Positions 1 through 41,641 of a stretch of 47,343 nucleotides of DNA are shown one piece after another; within the stretch, counting starts at the first letter, position 1; every line of letters starts with the position of its first letter. The translations under genes were made by a program, and so were the position numbers. The DNA is from an uncultured Mycoplasma sp. (GTDB taxonomy: Bacteria; Bacillota_I; Bacilli_A; Mycoplasmatales; Metamycoplasmataceae). The stretch covers positions 1 through 47,343 of the forward strand of contig CAMRAC010000004.1 of assembly GCA_947039955.1 (NCBI GenBank), read 5' to 3'. Under the pieces are notes generated by a model, which was given only the letters and a program-made list of their open reading frames with translations, did not search any database and was not told the origin of the DNA.

Positions 1-551
1 TAGGTACAATTGATGCAAGTGAATTTTCTCACTTGGATGCTACTGACAAAGAAATTGATCAACCGTCATTTGATTTAATTCAAAAACTATTTACCATTGA
101 ACCATCAATGGACTTACTAGCTTTAAAAGCAGCATTTACAATTAAAATGCTTCCAGATACAAATGTTATTACATTGAATGTTATAACTGGTCACACAATC
201 AATGGATCATTAACAACAATTAATTCATTAGAATTTACAGTTACACCAAGTGTAACTAAAGAACTTCCTTCGAAAACTTTTACAGTTAGACCTGCAATAG
301 TCAACTTCCAACTATTCACTAGATCATCTTCAGAAGTAGATATTACTAGTTATGAAATCGATAGTATTGGATTCAAAGCTGAAGATATTGATAGAACTAA
401 ATTAGAAATTGTTAAAAAGAGTTTTAATTTAGGAAACGTTACTGATGAAGATATCATGAAAGGTTTACAAGTTAGAAAAGAAACAACAAAAGAACAAGAT
501 GCTTACACATTAGTTCTAGTTGCAAAACTTGGATACACAATCAATAGATAA
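1..551 (+). CDS. C-terminal part of a repeat-type surface protein (5' end outside window)
   Basis: The reading frame is open from the first bases of the window, so the visible 172+ residues are only the C-terminal end and no start can be assigned. Two stretches look like degenerate copies of one module: a strand of alternating hydrophobic residues ending in a Gly-His/Tyr-Thr-Ile-Asn motif (GHTING and GYTINR), about 120 residues apart. This pattern resembles the ~90-residue repeat of mycoplasma variable surface lipoproteins (the Lipoprotein_17-like type), so I infer an extracellular role. No transmembrane segment is seen at the C-terminus, which fits anchoring through an unseen N-terminal lipid or signal anchor. 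A strong hairpin follows 40 bases later. Family assignment is by pattern only and uncertain. Confidence 0.6.
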   Translation, partial: GTIDASEFSHLDATDKEIDQPSFDLIQKLFTIEPSMDLLALKAAFTIKMLPDTNVITLNVITGHTINGSLTTINSLEFTVTPSVTKELPSKTFTVRPAIVNFQLFTRSSSEVDITSYEIDSIGFKAEDIDRTKLEIVKKSFNLGNVTDEDIMKGLQVRKETTKEQDAYTLVLVAKLGYTINR

Positions 552-29219: not shown

Positions 29220-32200
29220 ATGAAAAAATCAAACATATTAAAATCGGTTCTTGCCACGTCAGCAATGGTTGGTTTACCTTTAGTTATTGTGAATATTAAT
29301 TCACAAAATCAGACTAATATCAAAAATGCAAACTTCAAAAATAATAAACCAGAATTTAAAACTTTGAAAAATGCTGAGCAAATAATTGTTTCAAATCCTA
29401 ATATTATGAAGGACTCTAACTTTGCCCAAGTTAGAGATTTAATGGAATCAATTGTTATGACTCAAGAGATCTTAAATAAACTTGATATTGTAATGCCTAA
29501 CCAAAGTGACCCCGCTAAAGTTTCATTTACAAATATTAAAAATGAGTTATTTAAAATCTCATTTACCATCAACTATAATGGTTTCCCAAAAACAACATCT
29601 GATTTCTTAAATATAACACCAGAAAGCCAAGAAGTTGCTAACCACATTTATGTTGAGGATATTGATGCTTTAATTCACAATGAACCTATTGTTATTAAAA
29701 AGTTATTAGAAACTCCTATAATGACTCAAGCAATTTTAAATCAAGCAAAAATTATAATTCCTCGTGATGCAGAAGCTAGCAAAGTTTCTTTTTCAAAAAT
29801 TAATATTGACAACCCTTTAAGAGTTTCATTCCATATTAATTACAATGGTGTTGAAAAAATTGCTCCTGACTTCTTAAATGCAACAGCAACAGATTTGGAA
29901 GTTGCAACAGCAATCAAACTTCACAACCCTGATATTCTAAAATCATTAGATGTTATAAGCATTAGAAATATCTTAGAGCAAAGTCCGATGTCAATAGAAA
30001 TTTTGGAACAACTTTCAATTACTATTCCTGAAGGAACAAATGCAGCTTTAGTTTCATTTACAGAAGTTAATATTACCAATCCATTTATAATTACTTTTAA
30101 CATAAATTACAATGGAACACCAAAAACTTCATCTGATTTTCTAAATGCAACATTAACAGATAAACAAACAGCTGAAAAAACCATTATTCAAAATCCTAAT
30201 ATTTTAGGAAATCAAAACATAAATAACATTAAAGGTTTATTGGAAGCAAGTCCAATGACAAGAGAAATTTTGGAACAACTTTCTTTCAAAATCCCGCAAG
30301 GTGCAGAACCAAGTAAATATTTATTTACAGAGATAGATACTACTAACCCATTTAAAATTACATTCTTGCTTAAATACAACGGAGTTGCGAAATCATCTCC
30401 TGATTCATTAAACGCTAAACCAACAGACAAAGAAACTGTTGAGTCAATTGCTGTTCAAAATCCCGATATTTTGAAAAGTAAAAATGTGAGTTACATTAAA
30501 TCTTTACTAGACACACCTGTGATGACTAAAGAAGTTTTGGCTGAATTATCTATCTTTATACCTGAAGGTGGAGATATAAGTAAACTTTCATTTACAAACA
30601 TTGATATGTCAGGTTTGTATGGAGTTAGTTTTAGAATTAACTATAATAGAGTTTCTAAGGACGTTCTAGACTTTTTAAGTGCAACACCATCTGATAAAGA
30701 TGTTGCTGAAGCTACAACGCTTTCTAATCCAAATATCATTAAACAAGAAACTGTTAACTTTATCAAGAATATCCTTGAATCACCTACTATGACTCAAGAT
30801 ATCTTAACTCAATTATCAATTCAAATTCCTTTAGGTTCTACACCAGAGTTATTCTCTTTTACAAAAATTGATATTACAAACCCTTTCAAAATTAGTTTTG
30901 TTATTAATTACAACGGAGTTGCGAAAGATTCAATAGAGTTTTTAAATGCTACACCAACAGATGCAGAAATATCTAGAACAATTTTTATTAAAGATAATGG
31001 AATTATGAAAACTCAAAAAGTTCTTACAATTAGAGATATCTTAGAAACAAAAGTAATAACTACAGAAATCCTTAAGAGTCTTTCAATTACTCTTCCAGAC
31101 GGTGTCAATCCATCACTTGTAACATTTACAGATGTAAACGTTGATAATCCCCTAAGAGTTACTTTTATAATTAATTACAACAGAGTTCCTAAGGGTACTC
31201 CTGATTTCTTGCTTGCTCAAGCTAGTGAAGCGGAAATTGTTGATTCAATAACAATCGCTAATGTTGATTCGTTAAAAGAATTAAGTGGTATTAAAATTAG
31301 AAATTTACTAGAAGCTAGTCCAATGACTCAAGAGAACCTAGATAAATTAGGAATTACCTTCCCGGTGGGTGCAGATATTAGAAAACTTGCTTTCAACAAA
31401 ATTAATATTACAAATCTATTTAAAGTAACATTTACAATTAGTTATAACTCAGTTGTTAAAAAAACTTCAGACTTCTTAACATCAACACCAACTAATTTAG
31501 AAGTTGCTAATAAGATTCACATTAAAAATACAAATATCTTAAAATCACAAGACGCTCTTTTTATTAAAGGATTATTAGAAGGCCCTGTTACTTTGGACAG
31601 TTTAAATAAACTTTCAGTTCTTTTCCCAGAAGGAACAGATATTAGTCTAATTACATTTACCGAAATTAATATAACCAACCCTTTAAGAGTTACCTTTACA
31701 ATTAATTACAATGGTATAGCTAAATCATCACAAAACTTCCTAAACTCAACACCATCTGATTTAGACGTTGTTAATTCAATAATATTAACTGATTCAAATT
31801 CTGTATCAAATTTAGGTGTAGAAAGAATTAGATCTTTATTAGAAACAAAACCAATGAGTCAAGCTATTTTATCTAAACTTACAATTAAAGTTCCTGCAGG
31901 AACAGAAATTTTTAGAATTTCGTTTAATAATATTGTTATTACTAACTTGTTCAAAGTGACATTTACAATTACATATAACGGTATAGAAAAGTCAACCACT
32001 GATTTTTTAAACTCAACACCTCTTAACCAAGATATTGCCAACACTTCTCTCGTGAGTGATAGAAACATTTTAGTAAACAAAGATGTTTCATTCATTAAAC
32101 GTCTTTTAGATACAAAACCAATGAGTCTAGCTGTATTAAATCAACTTTCAATTACAATTCCAAGTGGTTCATCACCGGAATTAATTACATTTACAGATGT

Positions 32201-33659
32201 TAATATTACTAACCCTTTAAGAATTACGTTTGTAATTAACTATAACGGTATACCAAAAGAAACTCCTGATTACTTAAAAGCTTTAGCTACAGATTTAGAA
32301 GTTGTTAATGTTATTTTTGTAAAAGATAAAGATGCTGCAAGATTGGAAAATTCTAAGTTTGTTAAAGAATTATTAGATAAGAACCCAACAACTAAGGAAA
32401 TTCTAGCACAACTTTCAATCAATGTTCCTGAAGGTGCTGACATTTCTAAAATTTCATTTACTGATATAAATATTGAAAATCCTTTAAGAGTTATTTTCAC
32501 AATTTCTTATAACAATGTACCAAAGCCAACTCCTGATTTATTAAATGTAACTCCTGCTCAAGATATTGCAAATGCAATTATGGTTGAAAATGTTGATATT
32601 TTACAAACAGAAAATGCCCTTTACATCAAAGGTTTATTAGAAACAAATCCAATGAGTCAAAAAGTTTTAGATGAACTTTCAATTAAATTACCAAAAGGTG
32701 TAGATCCAGCAAGAATTACAATGACCAACATTGATACTAGCAACTTATTCAGAATTACATTCAAAATAAACTACAATGGTGTAGCAAGCGAAAGAGAAAC
32801 ATTCTTTAATACATCTCCAAAAGATAAAGATATTGCCAATGCAATTATTATTCAAGATTTTGACATCTTTAAAGATCAAGAACTTTTATTTGTTCAAACA
32901 TTACTAGAAACAAGTCCGATGACAACAGAGGTTTTAGAACAACTTTCAATTATTGTTCCAACTGGTATTGATGTTACTAAAATAACATTTACAGATATCG
33001 ATGTTTCAAATCTTGCATTAATTAGTTTCAAAGTTAATTATAATGGTGTTACAGGAGATAAAGCATTTTCATTTAACATTAGAGCTCCTTACTCAAGTAC
33101 TATATTAGTGGTTTCAACAGTTGTTCCAATTAGTATTATTCTTATAGTAGGTGCTTTGGCTACTGCGTTCATAATTAGAAAAAGAAATGGTGGAACATTT
33201 GAAAATGTATTCAGAAAAACTCCAAAAAATGATGAATCACAAGATCAACTTGATAACTCAGCTAAATCTATAAAACCAATTGAAAATAAAAACAAATATC
33301 AAGAATATACAAAAGAAAGTAACTTTGGATTCAATAATGACAATCAAGGTCAAGTATTATATCCAAATCAATCTCAAGATAATGGTCAATACACAAATGA
33401 TCAATATGATGAAAATGGACAATACCAAAATCAAGATGGATACTATGACAATCAAGATGGATACTATGATCAATATGATGAAAATGGTAACCAATGAAAT
33501 GACAATAAATGATATGGCGATAAATCAGAAACTGGTCAATGAGACAACGGTCAATGATTTGATAATGAAGGATATGACCAAAATGGTCAATATGTAGGAA
33601 ATGAACAAAAACCTAAAGAAGATGATTGAGATGACATGATCGAAATGATTAAAAAATAA
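29220..33659 (+). CDS. Giant repeat-type surface protein, single-pass membrane anchored
   Basis: A 1479-aa protein. Residues 1-~28 are a signal or anchor segment (SVLATSAMVGLPLVIVNI) without a lipobox Cys. From about residue 50 to 1285 there are 14 diverged copies of an ~89-residue module ending in F-x-I-N-Y-N-G-V. A membrane segment follows (TILVVSTVVPISIILIVGAL, about 1294-1318), then a basic stop-transfer and a ~160-residue tail rich in Gln, Asn, Asp, Tyr and Trp. Repeats lie outside and the tail in the cytoplasm by the positive-inside rule. The module arrangement resembles the large Mvsp-type surface proteins of mycoplasmas; exact function (adhesion, shielding, antigenic variation) is not shown. 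All five Trp (TGA) lie in the tail. Confidence 0.85.
29360..33080 (+). repeat. Fourteen ~267-bp coding repeats
   Basis: Each unit encodes a helix (FIKGLLE-x-x-PMTQEILxQLSI), an acidic Pro-Glu-Gly turn (IPEGxD), and a strand pair (SFTDINITNPLRVTFxINYNG). The 14 strand ends are variants of INYNG: six or more are INYNG exactly; others are ISYNS, ISYNN, INYNR, LKYNG, ITYNG. DNA identity between copies is only moderate, so recent expansion is not obvious. Confidence 0.85.
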
Positions 33660-38456: not shown

Positions 38457-39731
38457 ATGAATAAACTAAACGCAGTATTGGCAAGAAATATTGACGGTGT
38501 GTCAAACGGAGTTTGTGATTTTTCGCATACCGTTTCTTTTTCACACTACAATCACTTGTCTGCACAATTACCATTAAATCCATCAACTGGAAAACTAGTT
38601 GAGGGTGGAATTAAAGAACAAGCAATTCAATCTTTTAAAAATATTGAATCAATTATAAAAGGCATAAATCACGTTATGTCAGATATTGTAAGAATAACAA
38701 TTTTTACTAAAAAATTAGAGGATGTTGAAATAGTAAAAGATGTTTACAAAACATTCTTCACATCTTATCTACCAACAATGACCATATTAATTGTTGAAAA
38801 CTTACCAATGGGAGCTTTAGTGCAAATAGAAGCTGTCACAACTTATGGAGAAGGAACTATTCCTAACGCTCCACAAGCTGGAGACTTAATTAAAGTTGTT
38901 AAAAATACAGATCAAGCACCACTATGTAAATTAAAGTCACAATCCGTTGCTTTCTCTCATTACAACAATCTTTCAACCCAATTACCAATAGATCCAAAAA
39001 CTGGAAAATTAGTTACTGGTGGAATTAAAGAACAATTAAAACAATCTTTAATAAACATCAAAAGCATATTAACAAGTATTGATGTTCCGTTTGACGACAT
39101 TGTAAAAGTTAATATTTATGTTAAAGATTTAAATGATAAAGAAAAAATAAGAGACACTTATAAAACATTCTTTCCAGATTCAGCAATAGCTAGAACGGTT
39201 GGATATTTTCCAGCTTTATCAATTATTGAAGTAAAAGAAATAATGTTAAATGCTCTTGTTCAAGTTGAAGTGGTAGTATCCCATGGAGATGGAACACCTC
39301 CGCAAGAAATTGAAGATCGTCATGGAATAGTTATTAAAGCTAACAATACAGATAGAGCTCCTAGATGTTGTATCTCTACACAAACAGTAGCATTTTCACA
39401 TTACAACAACATATCAATGCAATTACCGATTGATCCAAAAACAAAAGAATTAGTTTCTGGAAATATAGAAAAACAAACACAACAATGTTTAGAGAATATT
39501 AAAAACATTTTGATGAGTGTAGATCATAAAATGGAAGATGTTGTTAAGTTAAATATCTTTACTAAAAATCTAAATGATATTGATTTAATTTCTAAGGTTA
39601 TTAAATCATTCTTCCCTAACATTGTGCCAGCAGGAAGAATTATTGAAGTTTCAAACATTGATAAAAATGCATTGGTTCAAATTGATGCAATTGTAGGAAA
39701 CGCAGAAGGAACACCTCCACAAAACAAATAA
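38457..39731 (+). CDS. Three-domain RidA (YjgF/UK114)-family protein
   Basis: One 424-aa chain of three consecutive RidA-like domains (about 1-142, 143-288, 289-424), each with the marks FSHYN(H/N)xS-x-QLP(L/I)-(N/D)P and LVQ(I/V)(E/D)A(I/V). RidA proteins are normally ~125-aa chains that assemble as homotrimers, so this chain could fold as one pseudo-trimer. The archetypal Arg of the P-A-R motif, needed for imine/enamine hydrolysis, is Met108, Leu254 and Gly393 in the three domains. Enamine deaminase activity is therefore unlikely and ligand binding is the more probable role. The start at 38457 follows AAGGA. No membrane segment. The next gene lies 41 bases downstream. Confidence 0.85.
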   Translation: MNKLNAVLARNIDGVSNGVCDFSHTVSFSHYNHLSAQLPLNPSTGKLVEGGIKEQAIQSFKNIESIIKGINHVMSDIVRITIFTKKLEDVEIVKDVYKTFFTSYLPTMTILIVENLPMGALVQIEAVTTYGEGTIPNAPQAGDLIKVVKNTDQAPLCKLKSQSVAFSHYNNLSTQLPIDPKTGKLVTGGIKEQLKQSLINIKSILTSIDVPFDDIVKVNIYVKDLNDKEKIRDTYKTFFPDSAIARTVGYFPALSIIEVKEIMLNALVQVEVVVSHGDGTPPQEIEDRHGIVIKANNTDRAPRCCISTQTVAFSHYNNISMQLPIDPKTKELVSGNIEKQTQQCLENIKNILMSVDHKMEDVVKLNIFTKNLNDIDLISKVIKSFFPNIVPAGRIIEVSNIDKNALVQIDAIVGNAEGTPPQNK

Positions 39732-39772
39732 ATATATATAATATAATTATATAAATAATGAAAGAGGTAAAA

Positions 39773-40006
39773 ATGTTAGTAACAACAACTGAACAAATAC
39801 CAGGAAAAACATATCAAATAATTGGGACAGTGTATTCGAATAGAACAATGAGTTTATTTGCAAAAACTGAAATCGCAAAAGCGGAAGCTAAAATGATTGA
39901 AGAGGCAAAAACACTAGGAGCTGATGCCATTGTTTGTATAAGAATCTTTACAACTGCCAACGGCGGAACTGGAATTTTCGGAACAGCAGTTAAATTCACT
40001 AGTTAA
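39773..40006 (+). CDS. Short YbjQ-family (PF01906-type) protein
   Basis: A 77-aa protein beginning MLVTTTEQIPGKTY and containing MIEEAKTLGADAIV, both hallmarks of the YbjQ (UPF0145) 'heavy-metal binding' family. Full-length YbjQ has about 105 residues with a central NIGRDI-containing segment; here the segment between the two hallmarks is shortened. ATG 39773 is preferred over 39758 because AGAGGT lies five bases upstream and the family start matches. Function of the family is unclear. Gly-rich end (TTANGGTGIFGTAVKF). Confidence 0.75.
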   Translation: MLVTTTEQIPGKTYQIIGTVYSNRTMSLFAKTEIAKAEAKMIEEAKTLGADAIVCIRIFTTANGGTGIFGTAVKFTS

Positions 40007-40068: not shown

Positions 40069-40503
40069 TTATTTATTTTTAGGAACTTTATCAAAAACTT
40101 TAGTTACCATCAAAGCACATTCAACACGATTTAAATGTTTTTTAACATTTGAATATATAGATAACTTTCCAACTAGCTCCAGCTCTTCATCTGTCATTTC
40201 TGTTTGATTAATCAATTTTTGAAAAGCTAAAGACAGTGCTTCGACATTTTTGAATTCTTGCTTAGCAGCTTCTTCTAAAAATATTTCTGAAGATGACAAG
40301 AAAATTGCACAACCAACAGCTTTGAAAGAATAATCATTTTTATCAATTGTTTTTATCAAAGTAATTTCATCAACGCAATTAGAACTATGGTAATAATATG
40401 TTTCCATCGCATCAAGATTTAAATCTTCTTTTTCTTTTCTTCTAGGATTTAAATAATAATCCATAATGATGGCTCTTTTTTCATCAGAACTATAAGAATC
40501 CAA
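40069..40503 (-). CDS. sufU: SufU/NifU-like Fe-S cluster assembly protein
   Basis: Accepts sulfur from SufS for Fe-S cluster or tRNA thiolation. The zinc ligands of the SufU family are all there: Cys and Asp in SSNCVDEI, Cys in AVGCAIF, and Cys in RVECALM. The typical GEGCSIS motif is changed to AVGCAIF. The start is uncertain: no ATG fits the family N-terminus, and a TTG at 40503 (or GTG at 40512/40515) after AAGGGGTGG gives the expected length (144 aa). An ATG at 40545 would overlap sufS more. It overlaps sufS by 14 bases, showing translational coupling. Confidence 0.82.
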   Translation of the reverse strand: MDSYSSDEKRAIIMDYYLNPRRKEKEDLNLDAMETYYYHSSNCVDEITLIKTIDKNDYSFKAVGCAIFLSSSEIFLEEAAKQEFKNVEALSLAFQKLINQTEMTDEELELVGKLSIYSNVKKHLNRVECALMVTKVFDKVPKNK

Positions 40504-41641
40504 GAAAATCACCACCCCTTTTAATAGCATCACAAATTTTGTCAATATCTTCTTTAGTATTGTAAAAAGATAATGAAATTCTTATGTAAGACTTGTCCTT
40601 AATTCGATTTAGATATTGATTACAGAATATCCCTGATCTGACATAAATATTGTTATGCCCTAAATATGAAGCTACATCTTGAGGTTCGGTTCCCTTAATT
40701 CCAAAAAGAGTTATAGAATCTCCAATTCTAGAAGATATTCTAACATTATCAATTTTGCCTAATTCATCAAATAAATATATTGATAAATCTTTAATGTGTT
40801 TATTTATTTCATCTAGATCAAGTGAATCAAAATAATCAAGAGCTGCATGAAAACCAAAAATTCCTGAAAAGTTCATAGTTCCGGGTTCGTGCATTGTAAT
40901 ATTATCTTTACTTTTTCATTCATTATTAGCTGTTATATAAGCGGTTGCTCCACCACCATATCTTTTTGCGACACACTTGTCCAAAATTGATTTTTTAACA
41001 GCTAGGATACCAACACCTGTTGGGCCATAAAATTTGTTTGTACTAAAAACTATAATATCTGAATTTTTAAAACTAACTTTTTGGTAAGCAATTGCTTGTG
41101 CAGCATCATTGACTAAAATAGCTCCAACCTCTTGAGTTCTTCTATAAATATCATCAATCTTTTCCGTTACTTGAAATGAATTATTTACTTGAGCAAAACA
41201 AACTAACTTTGTTTTTTCAGTAATATCTTTTTCTAATTTTATAGATAAAATAATTTTAGCTCCTGTTCTATTCGCTAACTCTATTCAAGGAACTATGTTT
41301 GAAGCGTGATTAAATTTTGATAAGATAATTTCATCACCTTTTTTAATTATTTTATCTAACAATGAAGAAGCATAGTTCAATGAATCAGTTGCTCCTGATG
41401 TAAAAATTATTTCATCATCTTGAGCATCTAAAAGTTTTGCAACCTTGCTTCTGGTTTCATTTATTTTTGTATTAACTTCTATTCCTAAAGTTGAATCTAG
41501 AGTTCTATTAGAAATAGAGATATTAGTATAAAAGTGAGTGATTGCATCTATTACTGATTGAGGCTTTAATAATAAAGCCGCATTATCTAAGTAAACGATA
41601 TTATTTTTTAACATTGGGAAGTCTTTAATTCATTTGTTCAT
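40490..41641 (-). CDS. sufS: Cysteine desulfurase (SufS type)
   Basis: PLP enzyme taking sulfur from cysteine. The 383 aa include the N-terminal VYLDNAAL, the PLP Lys in STNKFYGPTG and the catalytic-Cys loop VRSGIFCNQY, which corresponds to the RxGxxC motif of the group II (SufS) class. Two usual residues differ: the residue before the PLP Lys is Asn (normally His), and the EHHAN segment reads NHASN. The ATG at 41641 lies inside the end of tlyA (17 bases overlap), with AAAGGAAC upstream. SufU follows on the same mRNA. SufB/C/D are not in the window. Confidence 0.92.

What the first reader, a model, noticed from the sequence alone, without database searches (positions are those of the whole stretch)
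38457..39731. Three RidA domains fused in one chain, all with the catalytic Arg replaced
Seen: three full RidA-like domains in tandem, each with FSHYN and ALVQ(I/V) marks. The P-A-R Arg of archetypal RidA aligns with Met108, Leu254 and Gly393. Known: RidA is normally a homotrimer of ~125-aa chains, with ligand sites at subunit interfaces, and this Arg holds the substrate carboxylate. Inference: a covalent pseudo-trimer with three non-identical sites that no longer deaminates imines and probably binds another ligand.
Basis: partly seen in the sequence, partly recalled or inferred. Interest (0 to 1): 0.72.

Follow-up and report, generated by a model that had tools for sequence, protein, structure and literature searches.

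The report
Triple RidA fusion without catalytic arginines
A mollicute bacterium carries a known kind of one-chain protein made of three RidA enzyme domains, but its branch of the family has lost the arginine that RidA needs in all three sites while other parts of the protein stay almost unchanged, so the protein probably does a job other than the one its name suggests.

Summary
Window 38457-39731 (+) encodes 424 aa with three RidA domains (PF01042), and M108, L254 and G393 align with Arg105 of E. coli TdcF. The fusion is not new: Niehaus 2015 named it 3x-RidA and already suggested a covalent trimer. At least 567 contig stretches in GTDB genomes encode relatives; the best 80 all hold full triples. 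New here is the Arg survey. Of 82 distinct triples, 49 keep all three Arg and 6 keep none: four mollicutes, the window included, and two Spirochaetia MAGs. Nearly all 82 share other changes: Glu120 to Gln, Gly31 to Ala, and FSHYN hairpins; 38 of 38 single-domain RidA rows keep Arg, Glu and Gly. In the four mollicutes the Arg slots always deviate, yet the SHYN, GxGTxP, DSAIAR and EDRHG elements deviate at 0-1% against 38% overall, and dN/dS is 0.15-0.19. The model (pTM 0.90) matches chorismatases across all three domains (Z 26), so a closed pseudo-trimer is likely. My reading: a 3x-RidA that abandoned imine chemistry but kept a family-specific hairpin/loop surface.

The parts
38457..39731 (+). 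3x-RidA gene, 424 aa, three RidA domains in tandem
38517..38840 (+). RidA domain 1 (PF01042 match); R105 slot is Met108
38958..39278 (+). RidA domain 2 (PF01042 match); R105 slot is Leu254
39411..39695 (+). RidA domain 3 (PF01042 match); R105 slot is Gly393
38778..38780 (+). codon of Met108 (Arg105 slot, domain 1)
   Evidence: alignment, sequence
39216..39218 (+). codon of Leu254 (Arg105 slot, domain 2)
   Evidence: alignment
39633..39635 (+). codon of Gly393 (Arg105 slot, domain 3); Arg394 follows
   Evidence: alignment, sequence
38538..38552 (+). FSHYN hairpin, domain 1
38952..38966 (+). FSHYN hairpin, domain 2
39393..39407 (+). FSHYN hairpin, domain 3
38847..38864 (+). GEGTIP loop after domain 1 (low pLDDT, highly conserved)
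39285..39302 (+). GDGTPP loop after domain 2 (low pLDDT, 82 of 82)
39702..39719 (+). AEGTPP tail after domain 3 (low pLDDT from residue 418)
39177..39194 (+). DSAIAR insert of domain 2; Arg246 present in all rows compared
39312..39326 (+). EDRHG in the domain 2-3 linker (81 of 82)

Best explanation
The gene encodes a member of the known 3x-RidA family: one chain whose three RidA domains close into a single pseudo-trimer. Shown by computation: the three domains fit one triplication; the family is patchy across phyla, probably spread by horizontal transfer; nearly all members share a remodelled cleft (Gln for Glu120, Ala for Gly31) and three SHYN hairpins with three GxGTxP loops; and the mollicute branch has also lost the carboxylate-binding Arg in all three clefts while keeping assembly residues and the hairpin/loop set. 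Inferred: the mollicute protein no longer hydrolyses imines. Its genome shows no PALP-family enzyme, the family of threonine dehydratase, which is a classic imine source. The protein is kept for another function of 3x-RidA carried by the hairpin/loop surface, most likely binding of a ligand, metal or partner that orders the loops.
For: Domains. Arg, Glu and Gly slots against TdcF. Family survey: of 82 distinct triples 49 are RRR, 17 LRR, 6 without any Arg. Single-domain controls: 38 of 38 rows (36 different sequences) have R105, E120 and G31, and SHYN is not among the 8 hairpin forms printed for them; the triples form one clade (100) with D1, D2 and D3 as three groups. Model: pLDDT 88.4, pTM 0.90; chorismatase Z 26.4, 290 residues, 3.1 A, model 29..414. 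A triple with all three Arg gives the same: pTM 0.91, Z 27.1. Trimer residues named for plant RidA (S80, S92, K136, E182) are S/T, S, R/K and E/D in all three window domains. Selection: dN/dS 0.15-0.19. Mollicute deviation from the majority of 76 other triples: Arg slots 100%, Gly31 slots 50%, all positions 37.6%, SHYN 0, GxGTxP 1%, DSAIAR+EDRHG 0. No PALP match in the genome, while a PLP enzyme with two TGA codons was found by the same kind of search. In 18 of 20 genomes with a triple there is also at least one PF01042 match outside it; the two exceptions are mollicutes.
Against: Coordinates of the models could not be inspected, so pocket geometry, ring contacts and the placing of SHYN and GxGTxP on one face are unverified. 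R246 (all rows) and R394 (80 of 82) could in principle enter pockets. The loci were collected partly with a pattern holding FSHYN, which favours that motif; three triples found by tblastn also carry it. No biochemical role of any 3x-RidA was found in the searches made. Absence of PALP rests on a six-frame search of a 95% complete genome; the same kind of search missed the weak PF00155 match of SufS. dS is near 1, so the dN/dS values are rough. The tree is a quick one, and the grouping of mollicutes with Spirochaetia may be long-branch attraction.
Confidence: 0.6

Rival explanations
1. It is still an imine deaminase: another arginine, such as R246 of the domain-2 insert or R394 beside the domain-3 slot, holds the substrate carboxylate in at least one cleft.
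For: R246 is present in every triple aligned and R394 in 80 of 82; R394 directly follows the slot.
Against: Both arginines are equally present in triples that keep all three R105 equivalents, so they did not arise to compensate. R394 is Thr in the two Vibrionaceae triples, which are RRR. R394 sits in the slot of Ser166 of plant RidA, an interface residue. There is no such neighbouring Arg in domain 1.
Confidence: 0.17
2. It is a decaying relic: the imine source is gone, so the clefts drift and the gene will be lost.
For: The triple is absent from 8 of 12 genomes of the genus; no PALP enzyme was found; Arg slots and Gly31 slots have drifted.
Against: Intact frames in four mollicute genomes (window, L015, G008, L016; G002 is cut by its contig end); dN/dS 0.15-0.19; SHYN, GxGTxP, DSAIAR and EDRHG almost unchanged; different neighbours in every mollicute genome, so it is not kept by linkage.
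Confidence: 0.1
3. The pseudo-trimer acts as a protein chaperone or a protein-binding platform, as proposed for chlorinated RidA and as for the RidA-like FIST domain of FBXO22.
For: The model matches FBXO22 FIST (Z 14.7, 255 residues), which binds a protein and has no obvious pocket. A chaperone role of HOCl-treated E. coli RidA is stated in the abstract of PMC4284807 (listing).
Against: Only fold-level resemblance; no partner gene is conserved nearby.
Confidence: 0.13

Closest known systems
3x-RidA (Niehaus et al. 2015, PMC4433059; example EF_0115 of Enterococcus faecalis)
   Same: [quoted passage not shown] proposed there as covalent trimer units.
   Different: That paper's section 5 files them with the RidA subfamily and does not discuss their active sites. 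The window protein lacks Arg in all three domains, as do 5 other triples of 82.
Archetypal RidA / TdcF imine deaminase
   Same: Fold of each domain (VIA Z about 12-13.5); trimer-forming residues kept.
   Different: Arg105, Glu120, Gly31 and Tyr17 all replaced; one chain instead of three.
Rid4 to Rid7 subfamilies
   Same: Lack the catalytic Arg.
   Different: They keep Glu120 according to PMC4433059; here it is Gln in all three domains.
Chorismatase (PDB 5a3k, 5ag3, 4bps)
   Same: Single-chain, RidA-like pseudo-trimer; Z 26.4 over 290 residues.
   Different: 11-12% identity; Pfam finds only PF01042 in the window protein.
Cyanuric acid hydrolase AtzD (Toblerone fold)
   Same: Concatenated YjgF-like repeats; its active site lies in the central barrel, not in the outer clefts. 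A precedent for a moved active site.
   Different: Not among the 50 listed structural matches; Ser-Lys dyads not looked for here.

Membership tests
[quoted passage not shown]
   three PF01042 and three TIGR00004 stretches; one tree with 81 other triples found by search
3x-RidA | domains close into one trimer unit | tested here: inconclusive
   pTM 0.90 and full-length match to chorismatase support it; coordinates could not be inspected
RidA (archetypal imine deaminase) | conserved Arg105 that binds the carboxylate | tested here: not met
   M108, L254, G393
RidA (archetypal imine deaminase) | single domain of about 125 aa that forms a homotrimer | tested here: not met
   one 424-aa chain
RidA (archetypal imine deaminase) | RidA fold | tested here: met
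   Foldseek and VIA matches to RidA chains
RidA (archetypal imine deaminase) | imine hydrolysis | not testable with these tools
   needs an enzyme assay
Rid4-Rid7 | Arg absent but Glu120 kept | tested here: not met
   Glu120 is Q123, Q269, Q408; rule taken from PMC4433059 section 5
Chorismatase | sequence membership of the chorismatase family | tested here: inconclusive
   only PF01042 reported by Pfam; fold similar at 11-12% identity
AtzD / Toblerone fold | three Ser-Lys dyads in the central barrel | not tested
   not listed among structural matches, which does not exclude it

The most novel reading that the evidence does not exclude
3x-RidA as a whole is a family with its working site moved away from the RidA cleft: three nearly invariant SHYN hairpins and three conserved, unmodelled GxGTxP loops, with DSAIAR and EDRHG, form a quasi-threefold site that folds around an unknown ligand, metal or partner. 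The R105 clefts are optional, lost piecemeal in many lineages and wholly in mollicutes, whose protein is the natural experiment that separates the two functions.
Probability: 0.35. Interest if true: 0.65.

Novelty: new variant of a known kind. Interest (0 to 1): 0.42.

Why it matters
RidA names in databases imply imine detoxification. Here is a widespread and strongly conserved RidA-derived family, with at least 567 relatives in one scan, for which I found no published function. Natural variants that lack every catalytic Arg, in cells with no other RidA, offer a direct way to find out what the family does besides imine chemistry, and they warn against annotating them as deaminases.

Tried and rejected
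A mollicute oddity: rejected, since the best 80 relatives are full triples across Bacillota, Pseudomonadota, Bacteroidota, Fusobacteria, Spirochaetia and others.

An operon or partner gene: 99 neighbours within 700 bases of the 80 triples were scanned against Pfam, chosen from 108 candidates listed by the script. I left out 9, mostly short ORFs under 120 aa in high-GC loci. No family is matched by more than 3 of 99. The YbjQ gene next door was not found near the other 80 loci or in the three mollicute stretches (tblastn). Neighbours also differ among mollicutes.

R394 as a shifted catalytic Arg: considered, see rivals. A pairing of R394 with D410 was looked for and not shown (R-D 76, R-E 4, T-D 1, S-E 1 of 82), and R394 is Thr in two Vibrionaceae.

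Imine sources in the genome: PF00291 none, PF00155 none, PF01053 only the SufS gene, below cut-off. One search is not trustworthy, since SufS itself matches PF00155 when translated with code 4. PF00266 finds SufS. E. coli ilv, cys and tdc stretches were fetched to search for PALP relatives by script; only TdcF was used (it is also one of the single rows).

Literature: EF0115 in PMC3084688 (passage only) belongs to a pathogenicity-island gene table of another strain; from memory that table has its own numbering, so I did not equate it with EF_0115 of V583. PMC6834293 (passage) only lists an intergenic mutation beside EF_0115. No paper on RidA in mollicutes was recognised among the 8 listed of 82.

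Prevalence: 1 of 151 genomes, the centre genome itself, in an even sample of the class of Sporosarcina. Only the window genome among 394 of its own class gave a full-length match in the part of the list shown (lower-ranked matches were not listed).

Identical rows: L005 equals L015 and was dropped from counts of 82 (it is still in the 83). The domain tree holds 38 single rows, two of them duplicates.

Full report
CHECK. The ORF 38457-39731 (+) is real: 424 aa, no in-frame TGA, three PF01042 stretches (213 bits in all) and three TIGR00004 stretches. The genome is a 739-kb mollicute that needs code 4 for its other genes. These three matches are the only RidA domains in it. With E. coli TdcF taken from its genome record, Arg105 aligns with M108, L254 and G393, Glu120 with Q123, Q269 and Q408, Gly31 with A36, T174 and M321, and Tyr17 with F22, K160 and S307.

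ALREADY KNOWN. Niehaus et al. 2015 (PMC4433059; [quoted passage not shown] The fusion and the pseudo-trimer idea are therefore not new. Section 5 does not discuss the active sites of 3x-RidA. It reports that Rid4-Rid7 lack the Arg but keep the Glu, and that about 10% of RidA have Ser in its place.

HOW COMMON. All 80 hold a full triple ORF of 422-487 aa, 72 of 80 with three exact FSHYN. In the window's genus 4 of 12 genomes have it, one cut by a contig end; in its family 8 of 135 have any PF01042, four of them being these. In its class only the window genome of 394 gave a full-length match in the list shown. In the class of Sporosarcina, 1 of 151, the centre itself. The distribution is patchy, and the tree mixes phyla, with Flavobacterium among Bacillaceae and Nitrosomonas among Clostridia, which suggests horizontal transfer. 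Names of relatives come from the record titles.

THE ARGININES. Among 82 distinct triples (window, G008, 80 loci; L005 dropped as identical to L015) the three slots read RRR 49, LRR 17, QRR 3, MLG 2, RVR 2, KLV 2, and one each MCG, LLG, RLR, KRR, QLR, RMR, RRC. Six of 82 have no Arg: window, L015, G008, L016 (all mollicutes) and two Spirochaetia MAGs. On a quick tree without these three columns the six lie on one side of a branch with 97% support. The fewest changes are 8 for D1, 6 for D2, 2 for D3 and 1 for 'all lost'. Whether that is one loss or long-branch attraction is open. The sample is the 80 nearest to the window, not a random one.

WHAT NEARLY ALL TRIPLES SHARE. Q for Glu120 (81, 79 and 82 of 82 in D1-D3), A for Gly31 (82, 79, 77 of 82), FSHYN (76, 80, 82 of 82), GDGTPP 82 of 82, GEGTIP 67 of 82 and AEGTPP 58 of 82 exactly, EDRHG 81 of 82. 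R246 is present in 83 of 83 rows. Controls: 38 single-domain RidA rows (36 different) all have Arg, Glu and Gly at these places, and SHYN is not among the 8 commonest hairpin forms printed for them. The domain tree puts all triples in one clade (100) and D1, D2 and D3 in one group each (93, 96, 98), as one triplication would give. Since one scan pattern held FSHYN, I checked three triples found by tblastn instead (L148-L150): all have three FSHYN, three GxGTxP, Q, A and R246; their Arg slots are KRR, RRR and RRR; R394 is Thr in two of them, and one (L149) has EDRHN for EDRHG.

STRUCTURE. AlphaFold2 gave pLDDT 88.4 and pTM 0.90. VIA-align matched chorismatases at Z 26.4, 3.1 A over 290 residues spanning model 29..414, FBXO22 FIST at Z 14.7 over 255 residues, and single RidA chains over one domain at Z about 13. 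PMC11185555 (passages) says FIST has three repeats with pseudo-threefold symmetry, like chorismatases and cyanuric acid hydrolases, which may derive from the trimeric YjgF family. An RRR triple (L017) gave pTM 0.91 and Z 27.1. Ring closure is thus well supported, though I could not open the coordinates. In plant RidA (PMC4960622, passages) S80, S92, K136, S166 and E182 are reported as trimer contacts, and R165A keeps 2.2% activity. In the window these are S23/S161/T308, S35/S173/S320, R79/K217/K364, T109/S255/R394 and E125/E271/D410, while R165 is lost (the mapping of plant residues onto TdcF positions is mine, from the motifs).

WHERE CONSERVATION LIES. In both models the stretches under pLDDT 50 include about 132-139, 278-290 and the C-tail. 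Over the 82 triples the low-confidence residues have a mean top-residue frequency of 0.958 against 0.831 elsewhere. Relative to the majority of the 76 other triples, the four mollicute proteins deviate at 37.6% of all positions, 100% of Arg slots, 50% of Gly31 slots, 19% of assembly positions, but 0% in SHYN, 1% in GxGTxP and 0% in DSAIAR plus EDRHG. Between genus members dN/dS is 0.15-0.19 with dS near 1. The protein is under strong selection, but not for the Arg clefts.

CONTEXT. The genome shows no PALP-family enzyme and one class-V aminotransferase, SufS-like, at 40490-41641. In 18 of 20 other genomes with a triple there is also at least one PF01042 match outside it; the two exceptions are the mollicutes L015 and L016. 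Neighbouring genes are not conserved.

READING. Shown by computation: a 3x-RidA with no catalytic Arg, a single origin of the triple, intact assembly residues, purifying selection, nearly invariant hairpins and loops. Inferred: it does not deaminate imines, its substrate sources having gone, and it is kept for a second function of 3x-RidA that resides in the hairpin/loop set. AtzD, in which the site lies in the central barrel after concatenation (PMC3758960, passages), is a precedent. Interest is moderate: the architecture is published, the natural dissection of its function is not, as far as the searches show.

Noticed in passing
window 29220-33659 (+): A 1479-aa protein (code 4) built of repeats about 89 aa apart, with a Q/N/D/G/Y-rich tail at its C-end; Pfam gives only a sub-cut-off match. 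Signal peptide and membrane helix are my reading of the sequence; it looks like a mollicute surface protein.
   Followed up: partly
window 39758-40006 (+): 82-aa YbjQ_1 protein (PF01906), 26 bases after the end of the 3x-RidA gene; not found near other triples by tblastn.
   Followed up: partly
window 40069-41641 (-): NifU_N protein and class-V aminotransferase (SufS-like) overlap by 56 bases and face the 3x-RidA gene.
   Followed up: partly
L089 1623-2954, L093 1985-3253: Two Spirochaetia MAGs also carry a triple without any Arg (K, L, V), with Ser for Gln at position 269; these genomes keep further RidA domains outside the triple.
   Followed up: no
phage record OR846589.1 (hit H41): A record named Enterococcus phage Efs 1-1-1 (139 kb) contains a full-length triple at 60% identity; possibly host DNA in the record, not examined.
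   Followed up: no
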